Positions 4,436 to 20,311 of a stretch of 23,786 nt of DNA are shown piece by piece. The position numbers and the translations under genes were made by a program. The notes under the pieces were generated by a model. The model was not told the DNA's origin. It searched no databases and saw only the letters and a list, made by a program, of their open reading frames with translations. Source of the DNA: a virus; IMG/VR virus record IMGVR_UViG_3300035182_000635, positions 1-23,786 of that record, one strand, 5' to 3'. Within the stretch, counting starts at the first letter, position 1. Every line of letters begins with the position of its first letter.

Positions 4436-4852
4436 ATGGCCAAAGGCATTTACACACCGAAGAACGTCGAGAAGTACTTAGGGGATCCGAGAAAGATCCG
4501 CTTCCTCTCATCGTGGGAGCTTAGGTTCATGCAAGTCTGCGACATGAACCCAAATATCATTCAGTGGGGCTCTGAAGAGTTTCGAGTCAAGTACTTCAAC
4601 CCGATCAAGAAGAAGGTCTGCGACTACATCCCTGACTTCATCATCAAGTACAAGGATAGAAACGGCAATATCATCACTGAGGTGATTGAGATCAAGCCGT
4701 TAAAGCAGACTGTTCCTGACAAGCGCGCTTCGCTTTATGACCAAGTTGCATTAGCAGTCAATCATGCTAAGTGGGCCGCAGCAAAGATGGTATGCGAGAG
4801 CCACGGCATTAGATTTCGCATCGCGACTGAGAAAGATCTGTTCCGAAATTGA
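4436..4852 (+). CDS. 4: Head completion protein gp4
   Basis: 138 residues, close to T4 gp4 (150). The order of motifs follows the T4 protein: an N-terminal YTPKNVEKYLGDPRKIRFLS with a basic patch, SSWELRFMQVCDMNPNIIQWGSE, a conserved Y-x-P-D-F strand (DYIPDFIIKY), an E-x-K strand (EVIEIKPLKQT), and NHAKWAAAKMVCESHGIRFR near the end. The W-E, P-D and E-x-K arrangement is that of a small nuclease-like fold. In T4, gp4 acts on the filled head before the neck joins and is needed for infectious particles. It follows a tail gene and is cut off from gp16 by the inserted GIY-YIG gene. Confidence 0.85.
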   Translation: MAKGIYTPKNVEKYLGDPRKIRFLSSWELRFMQVCDMNPNIIQWGSEEFRVKYFNPIKKKVCDYIPDFIIKYKDRNGNIITEVIEIKPLKQTVPDKRASLYDQVALAVNHAKWAAAKMVCESHGIRFRIATEKDLFRN

Positions 4853-4860
4853 CATAAATA
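4853..4860 (+). promoter_or_regulatory. Late promoter box CATAAATA
   Basis: Seven of eight bases match the T4 late consensus. The box lies immediately after the gp4 stop and ends five bases before ATG 4866, again placing the predicted start of transcription on the ATG. Confidence 0.65.
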
Positions 4861-4865
4861 AGTGT

Positions 4866-5753
4866 ATGCAATCATCACACTTATCACGCCGAAAATATCA
4901 CTACATTTATAAAACCGTTTGTTTAATTACGACACGTTTTTATTACGGTCGTCATTCAACAGATAATTTATATGACGGCTATATGGGTAGTGGTAAACAT
5001 CTTACAAGATCATTAAAGAAATATGGTAAAAAGAATCATATTTGCACTATAATTGAGCATTGCTTATCATTTGATCTTTTAGTAAAACGAGAAGCAGAAA
5101 TTGTTAATCAGACATTAGTAGAAGATCCTATGTGTATGAATATGAAGCTTGGTGGTGCTGGTGGTAATTGTTATGCTACGAAAGAAGAAACCAAAAAACG
5201 ACAACAAGCTGCAATGAAAGCTTTTTGGAGCTCTGAAGAAGGTCTTAAAGTTCGTGAGCAATATCGTGCAGCTTCGCGACCATTCCCTGAAGCTTCGAAG
5301 CCACTCGCTTCAGAGAAAGCTAAAGAACGCATGGCTCGCATGAAAGCCGACGGTTCATGGTCGCTCGTTATCGAAAAGAATCGAGCTGCGCATACCGGTA
5401 AAGTTCTTTCAGCTGAACATCGTAAAAGTTTAGGTGATGCAAATCGGCGCTACAAAGCAGAGCATGGTAAAAAAGTATTCAGCGAACAAGCAATTGCAAA
5501 TATCTCAGCATCACTTAAAGGGAATGACAGGAATAAGAAGCAGTGGACCTTGGTTCACTTAAATACAAGAGAGGAGCTGATTGTGCATAATTTAAGAAAA
5601 TGGCTTAGGGACAATAACCTAACAGCTCCTACACATTATGTAAAAGCCGGCTCTGAAAATGTGTATCTTATCAAAGAAGAGCATGAAAAATTCTTGGCAC
5701 AGCGAGAAGCTCGTAATGAACAGCGTCGTCTTAAAAGAGCAGCAATGAAATGA
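4866..5753 (+). CDS. GIY-YIG homing endonuclease, free-standing
   Basis: 295 residues when started at ATG 4866. The open frame extends upstream, but that would overlap gp4 by almost 90 bases and lies before the late box. Near the N-terminus, YHYIYKTVC and FYYGRHST form the GIY-YIG core (Y-I-Y ... Y-Y-G), followed by DGYMGSGK, a conserved 'Y-x-G-S-G' strand, and the helix with catalytic Glu (REAEIVNQ). Residues about 110-260 are rich in basic helices with NUMOD-like repeats (KPLASEKAKERMARMK, GKVLSAEHRKSLGDANR, KKVFSEQAIANISASLKG) that probably bind DNA. Such genes cleave intron-less or gene-less alleles and spread into them. It is more AT-rich than its neighbours at the 5' end, as expected for a mobile insert. 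ATGA overlaps the next gene. Confidence 0.88.
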   Translation: MQSSHLSRRKYHYIYKTVCLITTRFYYGRHSTDNLYDGYMGSGKHLTRSLKKYGKKNHICTIIEHCLSFDLLVKREAEIVNQTLVEDPMCMNMKLGGAGGNCYATKEETKKRQQAAMKAFWSSEEGLKVREQYRAASRPFPEASKPLASEKAKERMARMKADGSWSLVIEKNRAAHTGKVLSAEHRKSLGDANRRYKAEHGKKVFSEQAIANISASLKGNDRNKKQWTLVHLNTREELIVHNLRKWLRDNNLTAPTHYVKAGSENVYLIKEEHEKFLAQREARNEQRRLKRAAMK

Positions 5754-11238: not shown

Positions 11239-11928
11239 ATGTCCAAAAGCGAGTTCATCAAACGGCCCAACTTGGTTGAAAATTACACGCAAGAGCAAGT
11301 TGTCGAAATTGCTCGATGCATGAATGATCCCATCTATTTCATGAAAACTTTCATGAAAGTTCAACACCCTGTAAAGGGTTCAATTCCGTTTATCTTATAT
11401 GAGTATCAAGAAACTGCTGTTAGGGCATTTTTGAATAATACTTATGTGTGCGTTAAAATCGGCCGACAGCAGGGCAAGACGGCTGTGATTGCTGGATATC
11501 TGCTTTGGTTTGCATGCTTTCGTGCTGAAAAATACGTGCTTGTCGCGTCAAAGGACAATGACGCTGCTATGGACGTGCTTAATAGAATTCGGTTCTCCTA
11601 TGAAGAGCTACCAATGTGGTTAAAGCCGGGTTGTGTGTATTTTAATCGGCATGAGATTAGCTTTGACAATGGCTCGACTATTAAGTCATCTGCTACAACA
11701 GAAAATACAGGTCGAGGTAGGTCAATTTCATGTGTTAGCGGTTCCACTAGAGTCGTGCTTAGATCTAAAGAAACAGGCCAAATCTTTATGTCTACGCTAA
11801 GAGCCATTTATAATGCCAGCTCGTCTAAGATGAATACAGTTCATGGAACTAAAATTCTTCAACAGCTCGAGATCACTGACGAGATATCTCAAAATTGTCA
11901 ATTTCAGATTAGCATTACTGCATTATGA
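11239..11928 (+). CDS. 17: Terminase large subunit gp17, N-terminal part fused to an N-intein
   Basis: 229 residues. Residues 1-164 are the N-extein: the start of the packaging ATPase with YEYQETAVRAFLNNTYVCVKIGRQQGKT, where GRQQGKT (75-81) is the Walker A loop, and SSATTENTGRGRSIS just before the splice site. C165 begins an N-intein that runs to the stop at 11926-11928. The rest of the ATPase and the nuclease are encoded in the ORF at 12017. Protein trans-splicing would join the parts into an enzyme of about 525 residues (T4 gp17 is 610). The break is not a simple frameshift: the downstream frame has a stop at 11984-11986, beyond this ORF's own stop. The region is more AT-rich than most neighbours. 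Confidence 0.9.
   Translation: MSKSEFIKRPNLVENYTQEQVVEIARCMNDPIYFMKTFMKVQHPVKGSIPFILYEYQETAVRAFLNNTYVCVKIGRQQGKTAVIAGYLLWFACFRAEKYVLVASKDNDAAMDVLNRIRFSYEELPMWLKPGCVYFNRHEISFDNGSTIKSSATTENTGRGRSISCVSGSTRVVLRSKETGQIFMSTLRAIYNASSSKMNTVHGTKILQQLEITDEISQNCQFQISITAL
11731..11925 (+). other. N-intein of a split intein in gp17
   Basis: 65 residues starting at Cys165 (CVSGSTRVVLRSKETGQIF). The first residues fit intein block A (C-x-x-G-x-T-x-V). Block B is missing here and is found in the partner ORF, so the break lies between blocks A and B, close to the N-terminus. This is the atypical arrangement known from the AceL-TerL intein, which also interrupts a phage large terminase. Confidence 0.85.
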
Positions 11929-12020
11929 AACCGCTTATTAAGCTTGCTGCTGATATTACACCGCTAATCGATTATGTTAAAGGTGACCCCAGCTTAAAAG
12001 GCAGAAGAAAATCAAAATGA
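11925..12020 (+). CDS. 31-residue ORF between the two split-intein halves
   Basis: ATG 11925 overlaps the stop of the N-terminal gp17 ORF (ATGA) and its own TGA (12018-12020) overlaps the ATG of the C-terminal ORF (ATGA). The peptide starts MKPLIKLAADITPLIDYVKG and has a basic tail (KGRRKSK). It has no recognisable family. It may be a remnant of a homing endonuclease that once sat in the break, or simply a ribosome relay that couples translation of the two halves. The neat double overlap is visible; any protein function is unproven. Confidence 0.45.
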   Translation: MKPLIKLAADITPLIDYVKGDPSLKGRRKSK

Positions 12021-12346
12021 AGTGCTATAATCCAATTTACGGCTTTGAAGTTCTAACAGCTGAAGGGTTTAAAGATTTTGACGGCGTGCTGATGTCTAAC
12101 GAGCAGCAATGCGTAACATTATCATTTAATGACAATTCTGAGCTAACTTGTACTGCTGATCATAAGCTGCAGCTTTCAGATGGCTCGTACATTGAAGCGA
12201 TTAATGTTTCGTGCTCTGATGTGTTAACGACAGTTAATTCAAAAAAGCTAAGCTCGATTAAAGCGAGTCACGAGCAAGAAGTTTTTGACTTGCTCAATGT
12301 TAAAGATACAAGCTCTTACTTAACAAACGGCATTGTTTCGCATAAT
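12017..12346 (+). other. C-intein of the split intein in gp17
   Basis: 110 residues, carrying block B (ELTCTADHKLQLSDGSYIEA with T-x-x-H), block F (HEQEVFDLLNVKDTSSYLTN) and block G (NGIVSHN followed by Cys). A segment FEVLTAEGFKDFDGV resembles AceL-TerL C-intein KILSPNGFSNFNGI as I remember it. All residues for the standard Cys pathway (block B His, penultimate His, terminal Asn, +1 Cys) are present, so it should splice. No endonuclease domain is left. Confidence 0.88.
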
Positions 12347-13432
12347 TGCTTAATGATTGACGAGTTGGCATTTGTAAATCCGACAATTCAAGAAGCGATG
12401 TGGGCGTCATTGGCTCCTACATTAGCTACTGGTGGTCAGTGTATCATCTCGTCGACGCCAAACGGCGATCAAGAGCTATTTTCTAAGCTTTGGCGTGCTG
12501 CAGAAGCAGCTGAAGACGGATCATTTTACCCAGTAGCTGCTTTTTGGTATCAGCATCCAGAACGCGGTAACGGCGATCCTACCTCACCCGCTGCGCTTGC
12601 TTATAAGCAAGGCATGATTGCTAAAGTTGGCGAGCTGGTTTGGCGTCAAGAATACGAAGCTGAGTTCCTCTCATCTGACCCGCTGCTGATCAGCTCGCTT
12701 GTCTCAAATAGCTGGAAAGCTGAAGAACCGCTCTTCAAAGACAGCGGCTTCTCATTCTGGGAGCGCATCGACCCTAAGAAGGAGTACCTGGTAGGCGCCG
12801 ACGTTGCTGAAGGCCTTGAGAAGGACTACTCATCCATCGAGGTCTTTGACACGAAGCTGGTTCAGATAGCCGAGTTCAGGTCAAACAAGATCAGCGAGTC
12901 CGAGCTGTATGACAAGATCAAGTGGATTATCAACTACATCATAAGCTCCAAGGATCAAACAGGCGCAGGCCGTCACGCTAAGCTGATGTGGTCATATGAG
13001 AACAACTCATGCGGCAAGGTGATCTCGTCGCTCTACTACAAGGACGAGAAGTTCCCTGATGACGGTGAGCTCATCTCAGTCGGTGAGAAGCTAGGCATGA
13101 ACACCAATGCAAGCACGAAGAAAGAAGCGTCCAAAAATCTTAAACGCTTGCTTGAGTCAAGCGCTATGAAGATCAAGTCAAAGGACCTCATCAATGAGTT
13201 CAAGAACTACGCTCAAGTGGGTAGGTCCGACGGCATCTACAACGCCAAGCCCGGCGCCACTGATGACTCGATCTCTGCTACGCTGATCGTGACACGGCTC
13301 TTCACATATGTCACGTCATATGACGATGACGCCTTTGACCGGCTCTACAAGAGCAAGATTGGCACAGGCGAGGAGCGTGAGCTTGATGGAGGCGGTGGCG
13401 ACATCGAGCCGATGCCTATGGCCATCCTATAG
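12017..13432 (+). CDS. 17: Terminase large subunit gp17, C-intein fused to C-terminal part
   Basis: 471 residues. Residues 1-110 are the C-intein and C111 is the +1 residue of the C-extein. After splicing, SIS joins CLMIDELAFVN, whose LMIDE is the Walker B strand and catalytic Glu of the packaging motor. IISSTPNGDQELFSKLW matches the coupling motif region. The C-terminal RNase-H-like nuclease begins at YLVGADVAEGLEKDYSSIEV (acidic D in GADVAEG), followed by later acidic residues (DDSISATLIV). gp17 pumps DNA into the prohead and cuts the concatemer. The C-terminal half has a more GC-rich composition than the intein. Its start relies on coupling (ATGA with the 31-residue ORF). Confidence 0.9.
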   Translation: MKCYNPIYGFEVLTAEGFKDFDGVLMSNEQQCVTLSFNDNSELTCTADHKLQLSDGSYIEAINVSCSDVLTTVNSKKLSSIKASHEQEVFDLLNVKDTSSYLTNGIVSHNCLMIDELAFVNPTIQEAMWASLAPTLATGGQCIISSTPNGDQELFSKLWRAAEAAEDGSFYPVAAFWYQHPERGNGDPTSPAALAYKQGMIAKVGELVWRQEYEAEFLSSDPLLISSLVSNSWKAEEPLFKDSGFSFWERIDPKKEYLVGADVAEGLEKDYSSIEVFDTKLVQIAEFRSNKISESELYDKIKWIINYIISSKDQTGAGRHAKLMWSYENNSCGKVISSLYYKDEKFPDDGELISVGEKLGMNTNASTKKEASKNLKRLLESSAMKIKSKDLINEFKNYAQVGRSDGIYNAKPGATDDSISATLIVTRLFTYVTSYDDDAFDRLYKSKIGTGEERELDGGGGDIEPMPMAIL

Positions 13433-13798: not shown

Positions 13799-14692
13799 AT
13801 GGCATTATCATTTGAACAGCTCAAGGCCGCATTCGGCAAGCGGACTACCGGTAGCTCTAACGAGAATACCGGCTTCTGGGACAAGTTCTACCCATTCTAC
13901 AAGATGGACTTCTCTGAAACGGCGCTCTTCCGTTTCCTGCCTGACGCTGATGAGGAAAATCCTCTCGGTTTCATCATCGAAAATAAGTACCACGAGTTCA
14001 CCGTCAACGGCAAGCGTAAGCGCATCGCCTGCTTGAAGATGCACGACGGTGCTGATGCTCACTGCCCGGCTTGCGCTGCTTCAGCCAAGTACTACAACGA
14101 GCTCGGCGATGAGAAGATGGGTAAGCTCTTCTGGCGTAAGATTGACTACATCGGCGCCGGCCTGGTGATGCATTCGCCGTTTGACTACCCGATCAGGGCC
14201 GATGAGAACCCGGTTCGCCTGATCTCGCTCGGCCCGAAGCTGTTTAAGCGGATCGAGACCTCGATTGCGAGCGGTGACTTTGACGTTGCTCCGTATGACC
14301 TCGACGAAGGCTTTGACTTCAAGATCATGAAGACGAAGCAAGGCGAGTACGCTGACTACTCGAGCTCCGAGTTCGTGCGTAAGTCAACGGCCATCAGCGC
14401 TGCCCTCCGCAGCCAACTCGAGCTCGTTGACCTGAAGAAGTTCCGCTTCGCTCGTGTTGACGCTGATGCGATGCAGGCTCAAATCGAAGCCTTCATCACA
14501 GGCAAGTCCTATGAGGACGAGAAGGCGAGCTCTACTCCCGCTTCTGAGCCGGACACAAGCCTGAAGCAAACGCCGGTGCTGTCGGCTGCTGCTCCCGCTG
14601 GTGACAGCGCTCCCGCTGGTGACGGTGGTTCTGCATCTGATCGCGCTCGCGCTCTGCTGGCACGCATCAACAAGGACCGCGCCGCTAAGTAA
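13799..14692 (+). CDS. 32: Single-stranded DNA-binding protein gp32
   Basis: 297 residues (T4: 301). N-terminal MALSFEQLKAAFGKRTTGSS contains the basic cooperative-binding segment (KRTTGSS, compare the T4 LAST motif). The core has the zinc site with H65, C78, C89 and C92, matching the T4 ligands H64, C77, C87, C90, and the OB-fold stretch KLFWRKIDYIGAGLVMHSPF. The C-terminal domain is Ala/Pro/Gly-rich with repeated PAGD units (residues about 263-275) and ends basic (DRARALLARINKDRAAK), whereas T4 ends in an acidic protein-interaction tail; acidic residues here sit earlier. gp32 coats single-stranded DNA in replication and recombination and works with UvsX/UvsY encoded just downstream. Leader features suggest late transcription and translational self-control. 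Confidence 0.93.
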   Translation: MALSFEQLKAAFGKRTTGSSNENTGFWDKFYPFYKMDFSETALFRFLPDADEENPLGFIIENKYHEFTVNGKRKRIACLKMHDGADAHCPACAASAKYYNELGDEKMGKLFWRKIDYIGAGLVMHSPFDYPIRADENPVRLISLGPKLFKRIETSIASGDFDVAPYDLDEGFDFKIMKTKQGEYADYSSSEFVRKSTAISAALRSQLELVDLKKFRFARVDADAMQAQIEAFITGKSYEDEKASSTPASEPDTSLKQTPVLSAAAPAGDSAPAGDGGSASDRARALLARINKDRAAK

Positions 14693-14698
14693 GCGGTG

Positions 14699-14736
14699 AA
14701 GAGGGTGGCTTCGGTCACCCTTCTCTCTTTTCTTTC
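14699..14736 (+). terminator. Rho-independent terminator after gp32
   Basis: GAGGGTGGC (14701-14709) pairs with GTCACCCTT (14714-14722, with G-T wobbles) around TTCG, followed by a pyrimidine/T-rich run. As in T4, gp32 would thus be made from a mostly separate transcript. Confidence 0.85.
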
Positions 14737-14747
14737 AAGGCTTTCAA

Positions 14748-15200
14748 ATGAAAGTATTTCTTGGTGGTACTTGTAATGGATCCACATGGCGTGATCAGCT
14801 CATGCCGCTGCTTGAAGTCGAGTACTTCAATCCTGTAGTTCCCGACTGGACGCCTGAGTGCGCAGCTGAAGAGCTGCTGCAACGTGAGAGCTGTGACGTT
14901 TGCCTTTACGTGATCACGCCCGAGATGACTGGCGTGTACTCCATCGCTGAAATGGTTGATGACAGTAATAAGCGGCCTGAGAAGACCGTGTTTGCTGTGC
15001 TCAATCCAGATGAAACCATTGGGTCATTTACTTACATGGCCAAAACATTTACGCCGCCTCAGTTGAAGTCGCTCGAAGCAACTTCGAAGCTGGTCGCTGC
15101 GAACGGCGCAACCTCGCTCGGCATCCTATATCAAGGCTTGCATGGCGTTGAAAACCTGGCCGCTTACCTTAACATGAGAGGTGCAGGCGATGTCGCTTAA
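14748..15200 (+). CDS. Nucleoside 2-deoxyribosyltransferase-like protein
   Basis: 150 residues. The start MKVFLGGTCNGSTWRDQLMP and the later YFNPVVPDWTPE and DVCLYVITPEMTGVYSIAEM fit the nucleoside 2-deoxyribosyltransferase-like family: a Rossmann-like fold with an N-terminal G-G-T strand, D/E in the centre (candidate nucleophile near E71-E76 or E100) and the 'S-x-A-E' helix. These enzymes swap bases between deoxynucleosides or hydrolyse them. In a phage this could serve base salvage, base modification or depletion of nucleotide-based defence signals (inference). CAAGG before ATG 14748; its end overlaps uvsX by 11 bases, which ties it to the recombination operon. Confidence 0.7.
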   Translation: MKVFLGGTCNGSTWRDQLMPLLEVEYFNPVVPDWTPECAAEELLQRESCDVCLYVITPEMTGVYSIAEMVDDSNKRPEKTVFAVLNPDETIGSFTYMAKTFTPPQLKSLEATSKLVAANGATSLGILYQGLHGVENLAAYLNMRGAGDVA

Positions 15201-16260
15201 ATTTCTAGCAGAGTTCAGAAAAAACGCGGCCAAATTAGAGAACGTCAACCTTGACGCTAAGCCTCCTGCATTCTGGTACAGCACAGGCAACTATGCGCTC
15301 AACCGCATCATCTCAGGTAGCTATCGGTACGGCTTTCCCCAAGGTCGTGTCACGGCTTTAGCAGGCCCATCTGACTCAGGTAAGTCCTTCTTGCTGACCA
15401 ACGGTATGATGCAAGCGCAAGCTGAAGGCGCTTACGTGCTCGCAATTGACACCGAAAACGCGCTCGACTACAACTACCTCAAGCGGGTGGGTGTCAACGT
15501 GTCACCTGACAAGTTCCAGCCTGTGCAGGTTGTGACGGTGCAGGACGTGGTTGACGTGCTGTCTGACTTTGTCGGTCTGTACCTCAAAGACTATGGCAAG
15601 TACAATCCTGAAGCACCGAAGGTCTTTGTCGGCATCGACTCGCTCAGCATGCTGCTGACTGAGGCCGAAAATGAGAACTTCAACAAGGGTGATCAGAAGG
15701 GCGACCAAGGTCAGCAAGCGAAGCAGATCAAGCACTTCCTGAAGACCATGGTTTCGCGGATGAAAATGACCAACATGACGTTGGTCACGACTGCGCACGT
15801 CTACTCAGCTGACCCACTGAAGGGTGAAGGCATGTACTCAGTGACGCCGTCGCTGCGGTACGCTTGCAGCCAGATCCCGATCATTACGAAGCTGAAGCTG
15901 AATGACGAGGACGCCAAGGGCAAGAAGACCACGATCGGCATTCGGTTGCGCGCTGAGACCTTCAAGTCGCGCTTCTCGTTGATCGGCTCAAAGGTCGAGC
16001 TAGAAGTCCCGTATGACAGAGGCTTAGACCCGCTGTCAGGCATCGTTGACCGATTGGTTGATGATGACGTGCTGCTGAAGGGCGCTTCAGGTTGGTATAC
16101 CCTCGAGTATGAAGGTGTGCCGGCTAAGAAGTTCCAAGAGAAGCAGCTTACCCCAGAGCTTGTTGAGCTCTGCCTTAACCACCCGAAGCTCAAAGAGGTT
16201 GACGAGCGCTTCAGCTCGCTTACCCTCGATGACGCTGAAGAAGAGAAACACACATCATAA
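15190..16260 (+). CDS. uvsX: UvsX RecA-like recombinase
   Basis: 356 residues from ATG 15190 (a GTG at 15181 is in frame, but GAGAGG at 15176-15181 is well placed for the ATG); T4 UvsX has 391. Walker A GPSDSGKS at 59-66, a Walker-B-like strand KVFVGIDSLSML, and a loop with basic/Gln-rich residues (FNKGDQKGDQGQQAKQ), then MTLVTTAHVY. A short acidic C-terminus (LDDAEEEKH) resembles the regulatory acidic tail of RecA-family proteins. UvsX forms filaments on single-stranded DNA and carries out strand exchange, loaded by UvsY against gp32. It carries no intein, unlike gp17 and UvsW here. Confidence 0.93.
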   Translation: MSLKFLAEFRKNAAKLENVNLDAKPPAFWYSTGNYALNRIISGSYRYGFPQGRVTALAGPSDSGKSFLLTNGMMQAQAEGAYVLAIDTENALDYNYLKRVGVNVSPDKFQPVQVVTVQDVVDVLSDFVGLYLKDYGKYNPEAPKVFVGIDSLSMLLTEAENENFNKGDQKGDQGQQAKQIKHFLKTMVSRMKMTNMTLVTTAHVYSADPLKGEGMYSVTPSLRYACSQIPIITKLKLNDEDAKGKKTTIGIRLRAETFKSRFSLIGSKVELEVPYDRGLDPLSGIVDRLVDDDVLLKGASGWYTLEYEGVPAKKFQEKQLTPELVELCLNHPKLKEVDERFSSLTLDDAEEEKHTS

Positions 16261-16269
16261 AGGATAATC

Positions 16270-16467
16270 ATGTCAACTCATGTCATGATCGTTAAGAAGC
16301 CAAGCGGTCACAATCTCAAGGTGACTGTCATGAACCCAGGCGATGCTGAAGCACGAGTGCATCTGCTGACAGACAACCAGGCCGTTGAGGTCATGGTCTA
16401 CGGCGGTGACGCTGCCATCGGCGGTGGTACCATTCAGCTTCACGAAGTGGACAAGCCTGCAGCATGA
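16270..16467 (+). CDS. Small hypothetical protein
   Basis: 65 residues behind a clear TAAAGGA site (16258-16264). Predominantly beta (HVMIVKKPSGHNLKVTVMN, VHLLTDNQAVEVMVYGGDAA), possibly a single small barrel. No family recognised. ATGA overlap with the GroES-like gene suggests coupled translation. Confidence 0.6.
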   Translation: MSTHVMIVKKPSGHNLKVTVMNPGDAEARVHLLTDNQAVEVMVYGGDAAIGGGTIQLHEVDKPAA

Positions 16468-16787
16468 CCACAACTATCAAGCCCCTTGGCGATTTCATTT
16501 GGGTCTCGCCGCTCGCTGATGACTCAAATGAGCCATATGTCGACAACGTCATCTCAAAGCAAGGCCTGCTGATGGTCGTGCAGAAGCAGAAGGCAGCGTC
16601 ACGTGGTTACGTGCGAGCCATCGGTCCTGGCAAGCGTGACGCCAACGGTGATTACGTCAAGATGCCGCCCATCCTCTTGGGTGACCTTGTGCGCTGGACC
16701 CAAGGTTCGGCGCAGCGTATCGAGCTGAGCGGTGAGAAGATGTACATCGTCTCAGCCTCGGCATTGATCGGTGTCGAGAGGCCGTAA
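16464..16787 (+). CDS. groES: GroES-like co-chaperonin (T4 gp31 counterpart)
   Basis: 107 residues (T4 gp31: 111; GroES: 97). IKPLGDFIWVSPL is the typical N-terminal strand 'I-x-P-L-x-D-x-I-x-V'. A mobile-loop region follows at about 28-40 (VISKQGLLMVVQKQ), then SRGYVRAIGPGKRDANGDYV, and LLGDLVRWTQGSAQRIELSG with the C-terminal MYIVSASALIGV, which correspond to GroES 'V-x-x-V-G-x-G' and 'V-x-x-G-D-x-V-x-F'. Such proteins cap host GroEL, in T4 to fold the large major capsid protein gp23. Placement between uvsX and uvsY is unlike T4, where gene 31 is elsewhere. Confidence 0.85.
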   Translation: MTTTIKPLGDFIWVSPLADDSNEPYVDNVISKQGLLMVVQKQKAASRGYVRAIGPGKRDANGDYVKMPPILLGDLVRWTQGSAQRIELSGEKMYIVSASALIGVERP

Positions 16788-16789
16788 GC

Positions 16790-17251
16790 ATGTCCTTTAC
16801 TGGAGGGCTCAAGCGCGAGCCTCTGGCTAAGATCGCTGACAGGCTCGCTAACTACGAGCTTGTCATTACGAGCTCAGCGCCGGTGTTTGAGATGAGCGGC
16901 AAGAAGCTCGAAGAGCTTTGCAAGCAGCATCCGCAAGATCTGTCGATGTATGCCCTGCTATTGCAAGAGTGCAAGACCATCGAGCAGTATGTTGCCGTAA
17001 AGGCTGAAGAGCAAGAAGGCCTGCTCTACCGCAAGTACATCGAGTCAGGCGCTCGTGCGCTTGGGGCGTCAGAGCTTAAGCAGTATGTCAAGAGCGACCC
17101 GCTCTACGTTGAGATCAAGACTATCATGGTTGAAGTTGACCATGTGAAGCGAAGTCTTGAAGCAATTGTAGGCGCGCTTGAAACTATGGGGTGGACTTTG
17201 TCGAACATCACCAAGCTTCGTGTCGCCCAAATGGATCATGTAATTCTATGA
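16790..17251 (+). CDS. uvsY: UvsY recombination mediator
   Basis: 153 residues (T4: 137). Helical throughout. A central LRKYIES-like motif (EQEGLLYRKYIESGARALGA) parallels the T4 'K-x-A-L-K-A-R-L-D-Y-Y-S-G-R' DNA-binding helix, and the end EAIVGALETMGWTLSNITKLR parallels T4 'C-S-G-A-L-D-A-I-K-S-R-G-F-A-I-K-H-I-Q-D-M-R'. UvsY removes gp32 from single-stranded DNA and loads UvsX. The position after uvsX and the GroES-like gene supports the call. GAGAGG precedes ATG 16790. Confidence 0.75.
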   Translation: MSFTGGLKREPLAKIADRLANYELVITSSAPVFEMSGKKLEELCKQHPQDLSMYALLLQECKTIEQYVAVKAEEQEGLLYRKYIESGARALGASELKQYVKSDPLYVEIKTIMVEVDHVKRSLEAIVGALETMGWTLSNITKLRVAQMDHVIL

Positions 17252-17273
17252 TAGCTGCACCTTTTTTCAATCT

Positions 17274-17471
17274 ATGACTAGCACACAAGCTGCCAATGCA
17301 TCACAAACGGCTGAGGAAGCCGTCAGGAAGATCATTGAAGACATAGAGGCGTCGGTTTACATGGGCTCGATGTTTTTATGCCTCTCGGCGCCGCAACGAG
17401 AGCGCCTACGCAAGCGCTGGATCAAGCTGATTGAAGGCGACGAGGTTGAGCATGACTGGGCTAACTACTAA
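17274..17471 (+). CDS. Small hypothetical protein
   Basis: 65 residues, helical and charged (TAEEAVRKIIEDIEASVY, ERLRKRWIKLIEGDE). It has no Shine-Dalgarno site; a T-run (17262-17267) lies before the start. Its 3' end overlaps the 3' end of the converging transglycosylase gene by 11 bases, a pattern that supports both ends being real. No family recognised. Confidence 0.45.
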   Translation: MTSTQAANASQTAEEAVRKIIEDIEASVYMGSMFLCLSAPQRERLRKRWIKLIEGDEVEHDWANY

Positions 17472-18336
17472 GGCCGAGCCGTTGCTTAAGCCGGTTCATG
17501 ACAACCCCGAACCTATTGGGATGCTTAGGATCAATTTTTGCAACTTCTTCTCGCCACATCGCTTCTATGTCAGCTAACGGCTTGTGAGCTTTATCAGCTA
17601 AAGCTTGCAACCGTTTAGCATAAGCTGACACTTTCTTAGCAGGAGGCCTTGGGCCTTCTCGCTCGCCACTGATATATGGGTCAGAGCGCTTCATCATTCC
17701 CTCATACATGTCTCGTTCATCATCGAATTTAGGCACGTAGCGAGGGTTCAAACCCTTCTTCTTCATGTAGTTTGTGAGCCCTACGTTGTAGGCTTGTAAC
17801 GCTGCTTCTTTGCTCTTCAGCTTTTGATAGTAGTCATGCAGGATCTTCGAGCCTACTTTGATCTGCTCTTCGGCGCTCGCCTTGAGCTTGTTAGGGTCTA
17901 GCCCCCACACGCCAGGTCTTACCTGCATTAACCCTACAGCTGGGTCTTTTGCTAGCTTCGAAGCGGCGTGCGGCTTAAATGAGCTTTCGATTCCTACTAC
18001 AGCAAGGATGTCCTCAGCTTTCGGGAACGTAGCTGCCTCGTGCTTAATAGCCAGCTTGGCGACTTTGACAGCAAAGTCGGTACCTACGGCATACTTGTCT
18101 GTAATCGCTGTAGCTAACGTGCGAGCACGTGCGTCAACCTTTGCTGCAAAACTCTTGAAGCTTTGACGTTTGATCTCTGATTGCTGTTCACCCTTGTCGA
18201 CGTAGTGTGGGTTACCTGTGGTCGAACCACCTGTCAAAGCGGCAGCAGCAACTGAGCCCGCAGCAACGATGTGCTTTAGCTTGAGCTCAGATAACTCTTG
18301 TGCAGTCTCAGGTGTTATTGCTTGGTCGAGCTTCAT
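17461..18336 (-). CDS. Lytic transglycosylase (SLT domain) with phage helical C-terminal domain
   Basis: 291 residues, read on the minus strand. Residues about 105-210 form a soluble-lytic-transglycosylase domain: ILAVVGIESSFKPHAAS with the catalytic Glu in G-I-E-S-S-F, VGLMQVRPGVWGL (the G-L-M-Q-V motif), and ALQAYNVGLTNY (A-Y-N-x-G). Residues about 235-288 (YAKRLQALADKAHKPLADIE through RLKQRLGLSS) are the same helical module as the N-terminus of the 10001 protein. The N-terminus MKLDQAITPETAQELSEL resembles the capsid-targeting-like starts of other genes and there is no signal peptide, although residues 23-36 are Ala/Val-rich. A virion enzyme that thins peptidoglycan during DNA entry is more likely than a lysis enzyme (inference). 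It is the only supported minus-strand gene. Confidence 0.85.
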   Translation of the reverse strand: MKLDQAITPETAQELSELKLKHIVAAGSVAAAALTGGSTTGNPHYVDKGEQQSEIKRQSFKSFAAKVDARARTLATAITDKYAVGTDFAVKVAKLAIKHEAATFPKAEDILAVVGIESSFKPHAASKLAKDPAVGLMQVRPGVWGLDPNKLKASAEEQIKVGSKILHDYYQKLKSKEAALQAYNVGLTNYMKKKGLNPRYVPKFDDERDMYEGMMKRSDPYISGEREGPRPPAKKVSAYAKRLQALADKAHKPLADIEAMWREEVAKIDPKHPNRFGVVMNRLKQRLGLSS

Positions 18337-18355
18337 TGGTCGCTTTTAATAGCCT

Positions 18356-18363
18356 GCTAAATA
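18356..18363 (+). promoter_or_regulatory. Late promoter box GCTAAATA for uvsW
   Basis: Late-type box 36 bases before ATG 18400, the same 8-mer as before gp17 and the 10001 gene. T4 uvsW is also a late gene. Confidence 0.6.
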
Positions 18364-18376
18364 ATGCATTGTTGAC

Positions 18377-18384
18377 TATTTATG
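18377..18384 (-). promoter_or_regulatory. Late promoter box CATAAATA for the transglycosylase
   Basis: On the minus strand the sequence reads CATAAATA, 40 bases before the transglycosylase ATG. The predicted start point lies within a few bases of that of the opposing uvsW late promoter. Confidence 0.6.
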
Positions 18385-18399
18385 AGATACTATTAAGTT

Positions 18400-19377
18400 A
18401 TGACTAAGAAGTGTACGGTGACTATTGAGGACGAGGTTAAATGCCGGATTGGTGGCCTACATCCGAGTGATCTGGGCGTGCTTTGGGAGAAGTTCGGTAT
18501 TTACGTTGAAGGCTACCGTTACATGCCTCAGTTCCAGCTGCGTAGGTGGGACGGCAAAACGCACTACTTCGACAAAGAAGGTAGGACCTACACGAAGCTG
18601 CTTGATGAGATTCTTCCGTACCTGATCGCTTGGGACTACGACATCGACATCGATGACCGTAGGCTGCCCGCTGCCCAAATCACAGATACGATTGACGCTG
18701 ACTTCTTTAAACTCGGCGCCGAGTTTCAGTTTCGTGACTACCAACTCAATGTTGTCAACCAGCTGCTAGCGGCAGGCTCGGGCTTTGGCATCTGCGCAAC
18801 GGGCAGCGGCAAGACCTCGATGTGCGCCGCGATCTGCTACATGCTAGCTAAGCACGGCTACCAAACTGTTGTGATCGTGCCAGGACAAGACCTGGTAGCT
18901 CAGACTGTGACTGAGTTTCATGACAGGCTTCGGAACGTTGCTGATGGCATTACTATCGGGTCATATTCTGGCAGCGAGAAGCAGATTGACAACAACATCG
19001 TAGTCGCTACGTGGCAATCCCTGCAGAACGCACCGCACTACATGACCTACTTTCAAGCATTTATAGTAGATGAATGTTTTGCTGCGGGTTCGCAAGTGTT
19101 AACACCTGATGGCTATATGCCAATAGAGACCTTGACAGCAGGTTCTAAAGTTATTTCTTATGATGAGTTAGTCGGTGAGTTTGTTATTGATCAAGTAATT
19201 AAGCTGTATAAATCTTTATCAAAGTCAAAAACTGAAAAAATGTATCGCTTGTTGTTTGATGATGAAACTGTGATAGAAGTAACAGGTAATCATAAATTTT
19301 TAACAGCGAGAGGTTATGTTAGGGCTGATGAATTAGGCCCTGATGATGAAATTGTAAATACAAGGACACACAGCTAA
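18400..19377 (+). CDS. uvsW: UvsW helicase, N-terminal part fused to an N-intein
   Basis: 325 residues. Residues 1-225 are N-extein: an N-terminal DNA-binding domain as in T4 UvsW (YRYMPQFQLRRWDGKTHYF), a Q-motif-like FQFRDYQLNVVNQLL, Walker A ATGSGKT (133-139), motif Ia VVIVPGQDLVAQT and motif Ib VVATWQSLQN, ending FIVDE, the first half of the DExH box. C226 begins a 100-residue N-intein up to the stop at 19375. The remaining helicase motifs are in the ORF at 19433. UvsW is the T4 superfamily 2 helicase that moves Holliday junctions and R-loops and switches off origin-dependent replication. Joined, the product would be about 482 residues, close to T4 (about 500). Confidence 0.9.
   Translation: MTKKCTVTIEDEVKCRIGGLHPSDLGVLWEKFGIYVEGYRYMPQFQLRRWDGKTHYFDKEGRTYTKLLDEILPYLIAWDYDIDIDDRRLPAAQITDTIDADFFKLGAEFQFRDYQLNVVNQLLAAGSGFGICATGSGKTSMCAAICYMLAKHGYQTVVIVPGQDLVAQTVTEFHDRLRNVADGITIGSYSGSEKQIDNNIVVATWQSLQNAPHYMTYFQAFIVDECFAAGSQVLTPDGYMPIETLTAGSKVISYDELVGEFVIDQVIKLYKSLSKSKTEKMYRLLFDDETVIEVTGNHKFLTARGYVRADELGPDDEIVNTRTHS
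19075..19374 (+). other. N-intein of the split intein in UvsW
   Basis: 100 residues from Cys226: block A CFAAGSQVLTPDGYMPIETL, then block B TVIEVTGNHKFLTARGYVRA with G-N-H-K-F, and ADELGPDDEIV. This is a full conventional N-intein, so the break is at the usual site before block F. The DNA becomes markedly AT-rich at the intein border, in line with horizontal arrival. Confidence 0.9.
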
Positions 19378-19389
19378 AGCGGATTTATT

Positions 19390-19425
19390 ATGCCAAGACC
19401 AGGATGGCGAACCGTAATAGCTTAA
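19390..19425 (+). other. 11-residue open frame in the intein gap
   Basis: MPRPGWRTVIA then TAA, between the two UvsW ORFs. It could be an endonuclease remnant or a chance frame. Without coupling overlaps the case is weak. Confidence 0.15.
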
Positions 19426-19432
19426 AAAGCAT

Positions 19433-19537
19433 ATGAAGCTTATACAAAGAATAGAGATTGATAAACCTAGCGAGGTCTATAATCTTCATGTTGAAAAAAA
19501 TCACAATTATGTCGTTAATGGGGCGGTGGTTTCTAAT
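19433..19537 (+). other. C-intein of the split intein in UvsW
   Basis: 35 residues: block F EVYNLHVEKNHNYVVNG and block G AVVSN followed by Cys. The terminal Asn and +1 Cys are intact, but the penultimate residue is Ser instead of the usual His, a change known to be tolerated in some inteins. Size fits canonical split C-inteins (35-40 residues). Confidence 0.9.
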
Positions 19538-20311
19538 TGTCACGGCGCAAAAGCTGAAGTCATCCGTGACCTGATCAACAACCACGGCAAGCATATCGCC
19601 TTCCGTTACGGCGTGACAGGCACGTTTCCGAAAGTTGAGACCGATCAGTATGCGCTAAAGTGCTCGATTGGCCAGATCATCGCACAAGTTGACGCGGCTT
19701 GGCTGATTCAGCAAGGCTACCTCTCGAGCATTGACATCACGGCTATCGAAACGCAGGATATCGTTGAGGATGAGTTCCCGGATTACCAGTCCGAGAAGGC
19801 TTACCTAGGGCGTAGCGAAGAGCGCCTCGAGCTGTTAGCAAAGATGATCATTGAGAAGCGTGACGAGCTAGGTAATACGCTGGTGCTCGTCAACTCGATC
19901 TCGCAAGGACAAGCTCTTGAAGAGCTGATCCCTGGGTCAGTGTTCCTCTTCGGCGAGTCTGAGAAGGACCTTCGCGCTCAGAACTATGCCGAATATGCTG
20001 ACCGAGATGATATTATCCTGATTGCCACGGTAGGGATCGCGTCAACGGGAATTAGCATCGATCGAATCTTCTGCCAATGGTTGATAGATATTGGCAAGTC
20101 ATTTACTCGTTGCATTCAGTCGGTAGGCCGTGGCCTCCGTAAGAAGGGCGACAAGAACCACATCTTCGTCTTTGACTTTCACTCGAAGCTGAAGTTTAGC
20201 AAGAAGCACTTTAAAAAGCGCAAGGACTACTACACTGAAGCCGGCTACCCAATTTCAAAGCCAGTTAAAGTCAAGTACACAGCAAACGTCAAACCAGGAC
20301 TAATTTCATGA
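19433..20311 (+). CDS. uvsW: UvsW helicase, C-intein fused to C-terminal part
   Basis: 292 residues. Residues 1-35 are the C-intein and C36 is the +1 residue; after splicing, DE joins CHGAK to restore the DECH box (motif II). Downstream are motif III region VTGTFPK, a RecA-like domain 2 with TLVLVNSISQGQALEELI, motif V ATVGIASTGISIDRI, and motif VI QSVGRGLRKKG. It ends with basic segments (FSKKHFKKRKDYY). The start ATG 19433 has only a weak A-rich upstream region. The frame upstream has a stop at 19418, past the other ORF's stop, so a single-base error could not merge them. Confidence 0.9.
   Translation: MKLIQRIEIDKPSEVYNLHVEKNHNYVVNGAVVSNCHGAKAEVIRDLINNHGKHIAFRYGVTGTFPKVETDQYALKCSIGQIIAQVDAAWLIQQGYLSSIDITAIETQDIVEDEFPDYQSEKAYLGRSEERLELLAKMIIEKRDELGNTLVLVNSISQGQALEELIPGSVFLFGESEKDLRAQNYAEYADRDDIILIATVGIASTGISIDRIFCQWLIDIGKSFTRCIQSVGRGLRKKGDKNHIFVFDFHSKLKFSKKHFKKRKDYYTEAGYPISKPVKVKYTANVKPGLIS

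What the first reader, a model, noticed from the sequence alone, without database searches (positions are those of the whole stretch)
18400..20311. Second, conventionally split intein in UvsW
UvsW is broken exactly inside the DExH box (DE | CH). The N-intein (100 residues) and C-intein (35 residues) have the canonical split size. Stops at 19375 and 19418 rule out a single frameshift. The penultimate residue is Ser, not His, so its splicing chemistry may be slower or compensated elsewhere. A UvsW split intein is, to my knowledge, rarely or not described.
Basis: partly seen in the sequence, partly recalled or inferred. Interest (0 to 1): 0.8.

Follow-up and report, generated by a model that had tools for sequence, protein, structure and literature searches.

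The report
Split intein breaking phage UvsW helicase
A phage repair helicase gene (uvsW) is broken in two inside its ATP-burning motif, each half carries half of a self-splicing protein (intein) that should rejoin them, and the short gap between the halves still holds a scrap of the DNA-cutting gene that once sat there.

Summary
UvsW is encoded by two ORFs (18400-19377 and 19433-20311) that break between DE and CH of the DExH box. They carry a 100-residue N-intein and a 35-residue C-intein, both above NCBIfam intein cut-offs. No single frameshift can join them.

It is not isolated. The same intein at the same DE|CH site occurs in 64 distinct phage alleles, including Salmonella phage S16 and Proteus phage PM2, where it is not annotated as an intein. 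Most alleles (48) hold a homing-endonuclease (HEN) ORF between the halves: the "fractured gene" arrangement. Twelve, the window included, have no HEN; one HEN is truncated; three inteins are contiguous.

The window's 55-nt gap keeps a recognisable HEN leader and start (0 of 500 shuffles score as high). So it is best read as a fractured uvsW that lost its HEN by deletion and must still trans-splice. Penultimate Ser is the family norm (39 of 63), not a defect. The closest host relative (75% identical) has an empty DEAH site.

This is a new host gene for a known kind of element. Splicing itself is inferred, not shown.

The parts
18400..19074 (+). UvsW N-extein (225 codons): UvsW N-terminal domain and helicase domain 1 up to ...VDE of motif II
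   Evidence: PF04851 ResIII 65.2 bits, UvsW_N weak; phrog_16259 DNA helicase E 3e-61; aligns to T4 UvsW 2-237
19075..19374 (+). N-intein (Cys1; block B TGNH), stop TAA 19375-19377
   Evidence: TIGR01445 29.9 bits; 52% identical to the IntN of Salmonella phage S16; AlphaFold model of the N half matches the Npu DnaE split intein 4qfq_A
19366..19399 (+). remnant of the homing-endonuclease leader and start (overlaps the IntN tail; degenerate late-promoter-like TGTAAATA just upstream)
   Evidence: best score 39 against HEN leaders; 0 of 500 dinucleotide shuffles reach it
19390..19425 (+). vestigial mini-ORF MPRPGWRTVIA*, starting where HENs of relatives start (MPK/MAK...)
   Evidence: sequence; alignment to L108/L140/L113 leaders
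19433..19537 (+). C-intein, 35 codons MKLIQ...NHNYVVNGAVVSN, ATG start
   Evidence: TIGR01443 28.9 bits; alignment A1
19538..20311 (+). UvsW C-extein beginning with +1 Cys (CHGAK...), helicase domain 2, stop
   Evidence: phrog_9690 and phrog_16 DNA helicase; aligns to T4 UvsW 229-502

Best explanation
The two ORFs are translated separately. Each carries half of one class-1 intein; the halves associate, excise themselves and ligate the last Glu of the N-extein to the Cys of the C-extein (protein trans-splicing), giving a full-length 482-aa UvsW helicase with a DECH motif II. UvsW should be inactive before splicing, because motif II is interrupted. The split arose as a fractured gene: a mobile element made of a split intein with a free-standing homing-endonuclease gene between its halves invaded uvsW. 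In the window lineage the endonuclease gene was later deleted, leaving its leader and start as a scar and leaving the split intein as an immobile, obligate trans-splicer. Shown: gene layout, intein homology, conserved catalytic residues, HEN-leader scar, empty and HEN-bearing relatives. Inferred: trans-splicing activity, direction of evolution, immobility.
For: Intein N and C domains above curated cut-offs. 64 alleles at the identical DE|CH site, with Cys1 in 64 of 64, block-B TxxH in 63 of 64 by script and the last by eye, and terminal Asn, +1 Cys and +2 His in 63 of 63. 48 alleles with a HEN ORF, usually in a gap of about 920 nt; the HEN carries NUMOD3 and a TnsA-like nuclease domain. Window gap matches HEN leaders, 0 of 500 shuffles; HEN scars at one or both ends also in L070, L095, L121, L123, L032, L010, L025, L026. 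HEN-less alleles are scattered on the intein tree, 12 changes, at least 10 forced by supported branches. Intein 51-57% identical to S16 while the exteins are 25-26%, and nearest host L006 (75%) is empty: horizontal acquisition. GC of intein 0.33-0.36 against 0.50-0.52 in the exteins. Predicted folds: window N half matches T4 UvsW and the Npu DnaE split intein; contiguous relative L131 contains a HINT domain, Z 17.8 to the DnaB mini-intein.
Against: No experiment shows splicing. The window intein sits on a long branch (1.07). Only the 5' end of the gap is recognisable as HEN; the 3' end is not. The second contig stops exactly at 19434, so the junction into the C-intein rests on the window's assembly alone, and the population may be mixed there.
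Confidence: 0.87

Rival explanations
1. Decaying intein: uvsW is inactivated, or the halves no longer splice, and the virus tolerates it.
For: HEN lost; long intein branch.
Against: Both exteins are full length and 71-80% identical to the intact relative; all splicing residues intact; no internal stops.
Confidence: 0.07
2. The halves work as a two-subunit helicase without splicing (genes in pieces, as reported for a phage ribonucleotide reductase).
For: Precedent of a reductase gene split by a homing endonuclease into two working peptides (cited in PMC10448857).
Against: The break lies inside the catalytic DExH motif, and intein catalytic residues are conserved in every allele, which splicing best explains.
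Confidence: 0.03
3. Assembly or sequencing artefact of a contiguous intein.
For: Three contiguous alleles exist; the second contig ends at 19434.
Against: Stops in two frames, a 55-nt gap with recognisable HEN leader, a second contig identical across the gap, and 11 other HEN-less split alleles.
Confidence: 0.03

Closest known systems
Fractured genes with split inteins and an inserted homing endonuclease (Dassa et al. 2009, doi 10.1093/nar/gkp095; not readable here, known from citing papers and memory)
   Same: Host gene of DNA metabolism, mainly in phages, broken by a split intein; most relatives carry a free-standing HEN between the halves
   Different: Host gene is uvsW; the window copy has lost the HEN and keeps only its leader. 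Pfam reads the HEN of relatives as NUMOD3 + TnsA-like nuclease; whether it equals the reported Vsr-like family was not tested
Salmonella phage S16 gp114/gp114.1/gp115 and Proteus phage PM2 helicase/hypothetical/helicase
   Same: Same intein family, same DE|CH site, same two halves
   Different: They keep the HEN (291 aa) between the halves; extein only 25-26% identical (S16)
Npu DnaE split intein
   Same: About 100 + 35 residue split; N-half fold match; C-intein ends Ser-Asn (from memory)
   Different: Cyanobacterial DNA polymerase host; halves at distant loci (from memory)
Contiguous UvsW inteins L019, L128, L131
   Same: Same site and intein family
   Different: One ORF, no split

Membership tests
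Class 1 intein | Cys/Ser1, block B TxxH, terminal Asn, +1 Cys/Ser/Thr | tested here: met
   C1, TGNH, N, C+1 in the window; conserved throughout the family
Class 1 intein | Intein N and C profile matches above cut-off | tested here: met
   TIGR01445 and TIGR01443; Pfam PF14890 is below its cut-off for each half alone
Class 1 intein | Protein splicing activity | not testable with these tools
   needs expression
Naturally split intein (canonical split) | Two ORFs, split at the HEN position, about 100 + 35 residues | tested here: met
Fractured gene | Split intein in a conserved enzyme gene of a phage | tested here: met
   uvsW
Fractured gene | Free-standing endonuclease gene between the halves | tested here: not met
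   absent in the window; only its leader and start remain; present in 48 of 64 alleles
UvsW helicase | UvsW N domain plus two helicase domains, DExH motif II | tested here: met
   2oca alignment; T4 UvsW itself has DECH

The most novel reading that the evidence does not exclude
At one insertion site all stages of split-intein life are visible: empty, split with HEN, HEN deleted but still split (window), and HEN deleted with the two halves fused again into one ORF (L128 keeps a HEN-leader-like scar). A contiguous intein can thus be regenerated from a split one, and HEN loss repeatedly leaves phages dependent on trans-splicing through the ATPase motif of a repair helicase.
Probability: 0.55. Interest if true: 0.62.

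Novelty: new member of a known kind. Interest (0 to 1): 0.5.

Why it matters
Judging from the literature held, it adds uvsW as a host gene of fractured-gene split inteins, with about 60 new natural split pairs that could serve as protein-ligation tools. In one metagenome (3300037010) empty, HEN-bearing and HEN-less alleles co-occur.

Tried and rejected
Single frameshift or readthrough: rejected, stops in both frames. Unusual penultimate residue as a sign of slow splicing: rejected by the family survey. HEN 3' end in the window gap: no signal. Covariation of the HEN leader hairpin: the arms are nearly invariant, so uninformative. Bacterial genome collection with the N-half alignment: no relatives; the combined alignment could not be used. 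Exact search for another allele joined after 19434: only L064 found upstream, nothing downstream. The 2009 fractured-genes paper is not held, so I could not check whether uvsW is among its eight enzyme types (number from memory).

Full report
What is there. The window is a 23.8-kb virus record from IMG/VR, probably a fragment, with T4-like genes (gp32, UvsX, UvsY, UvsW, TerL). UvsW is encoded in two ORFs, 18400-19377 and 19433-20311. The N half ends its extein at ...FIVDE and continues with CFAAGSQVLTPDG...VTGNHKFLT...; the C half starts MKLIQRIEIDKPSEVYNLHVEKNHNYVVNGAVVSN and continues CHGAKAEV.... Both intein halves pass NCBIfam cut-offs. The N frame stops at 19375 and the C frame is closed at 19418, so neither one frameshift nor one readthrough joins them. 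The two exteins cover T4 UvsW residues 2-237 and 229-502. T4 UvsW has DECH at the same place, so the expected product has a natural motif II.

How common it is. tblastn found the N half, intein included, in Salmonella phages (S16, STP4-a and others) and Proteus phage PM2. There the two helicase halves flank a hypothetical protein. Bacillus phage G gp221/gp223 shows a divergent intein at the same DE|CH site. Two scans of IMG/VR returned 54 loci (C half) and the best 80 of 159 (N half). Profiles built from five of the sequences gave 106 loci with both intein halves, 66 distinct. Leaving out L063 (another gene) and L004 (phage G), 64 remain at this site: 48 with a HEN ORF (in L072 fused in frame to the N-intein; shortened or broken in a few, such as L008), 1 with a truncated HEN (L026), 12 with none (window included), and 3 contiguous (L019, L128, L131).

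Selection on splicing. Cys1 is present in 64 of 64, TxxH in 63 of 64 by script (L031 reads LTGNH by eye), and terminal Asn, +1 Cys and +2 His in all 63 readable ends. The penultimate residue is Ser 39, Ala 15, His 4, Lys 3, Thr 1, Gln 1. A review lists penultimate His as the usual residue (PMC7765530). Ser is thus atypical for inteins at large but normal in this family, and Npu DnaE also ends Ser-Asn (from memory). I do not expect a special defect.

The gap as a scar. HENs of relatives mostly start about 30 nt after the N-intein with a leader of the form CATAAATACAT...AAAGgAGatGTATTTATG. NATAAATA, which resembles the T4 late promoter -10 box (from memory), is present in 40 of 43 leaders examined. 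The window reads GTAAATACAAGGACACACAGCTAAAGCGGATTTATTATGCCAAGA. Aligned to 46 HEN leaders, its best score is 39 and its mean 22.2; none of 500 dinucleotide shuffles reached either. The 3' side shows no signal. Other short-gap alleles keep the HEN's C-terminus instead (L121, L123, L095), its start (L032, L026) or both ends (L010, L025). On a tree of 62 inteins the HEN-less alleles need 12 changes, at least 10 of them forced by supported branches, and their sisters are mostly HEN-bearing. Repeated HEN loss is the simplest reading. L128, contiguous, lies inside a supported clade of 10 alleles of which 8 carry the HEN, and keeps a leader-like sequence (1 of 200 shuffles as good). This suggests refusion, though less firmly.

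Mobility. Window against S16: intein 51% (N) and 57% (C), exteins 25% and 26%. The nearest exteins with an intein (L010, L014, L008; 48-52%) have less similar inteins (45-50%) than more distant hosts (L116: intein 60%, extein 40%). The closest host, L006/L007 (75%), has an intact, empty site with DEAH. Among 34 HEN-bearing alleles, intein identity exceeds extein identity by 10 points or more in 259 of 561 pairs, against 12 the other way, and intein and HEN similarities correlate (r 0.70; partial 0.55 given the extein). The intein is AT-rich (GC 0.33-0.36 against 0.50-0.52).

Structure. AlphaFold2 on the window N half (pLDDT 84) matches T4 UvsW (1rif, E 1.6e-12) and the native Npu DnaE split intein (4qfq_A, E 3.9e-4). 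The contiguous relative L131, modelled with both sets of halves in the alignment, contains a HINT domain at residues 249-380 (DnaB mini-intein 1mi8, Z 17.8, rmsd 1.7 over 127; NrdJ-1 split intein, Z 16.7) inside a UvsW fold (Z 24.9). This model is of a relative, not of the window protein; part of its intein (residues 241-300) has pLDDT near 50-68.

Assembly. A contig from metagenome 3300037010 is identical over window 14400-19434 and ends there. It confirms the gap but not the last junction. Searches for other contigs on either side found nothing else. The same metagenome holds an empty allele (L006) and a HEN-bearing allele (L011).

Literature. Seven held papers contain both uvsW and intein; in the four searched none describes a uvsW intein, and no held paper has uvsW with trans-splicing. 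The key paper on fractured genes (gkp095) is not held, so uvsW could already be on its list. A similar HEN-bearing split intein in a phage PolB is described in PMC6892783.

Verdict. A real, canonically split UvsW intein, a HEN-deleted member of the fractured-gene kind. Splicing is very likely but untested.

Noticed in passing
window 11239-11928 and 12017-13432: Terminase large subunit (TerL) is also split, with a short N-intein (from Cys of SIS|CVSGSTRV) and a long C-intein ending SHN|C; resembles the atypical AceL-TerL split (from memory).
   Followed up: partly
window 4764-5753: Homing-endonuclease-like ORF (phrog_314, E 1.8e-38) overlapping the end of the head-closure gene 4436-4852.
   Followed up: no
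HEN leaders, e.g. L113:4983-5027, L140:2595-2639: Late-promoter-like CATAAATA forms one arm of an inverted repeat whose other arm ends at the HEN start codon (CATAAATAC...GTATTTATG); could keep the HEN silent except from the late promoter, as described for T4 I-TevI (from memory). Arms nearly invariant, so no covariation evidence.
   Followed up: partly
L128:86-1966: Contiguous UvsW intein nested among split HEN-bearing alleles with a leader-like scar: possible refusion of a split intein.
   Followed up: partly
L072: N-intein ORF runs on in frame into the HEN, making an IntN-HEN fusion.
   Followed up: no
L018, L025, L026, L028: Match to the UvsW N half falls in two pieces about 0.4 to 1.1 kb apart, suggesting a second insertion in the gene.
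   Followed up: no
L064 end (window 19434): Contig of the same virus ends exactly at the C-intein start codon; possible mixed population at the junction.
   Followed up: partly
L004 (Bacillus phage G gp221/gp222/gp223): Divergent split intein at the same DE|CH position of an XPB/UvsW-like helicase, annotated as separate genes.
   Followed up: partly
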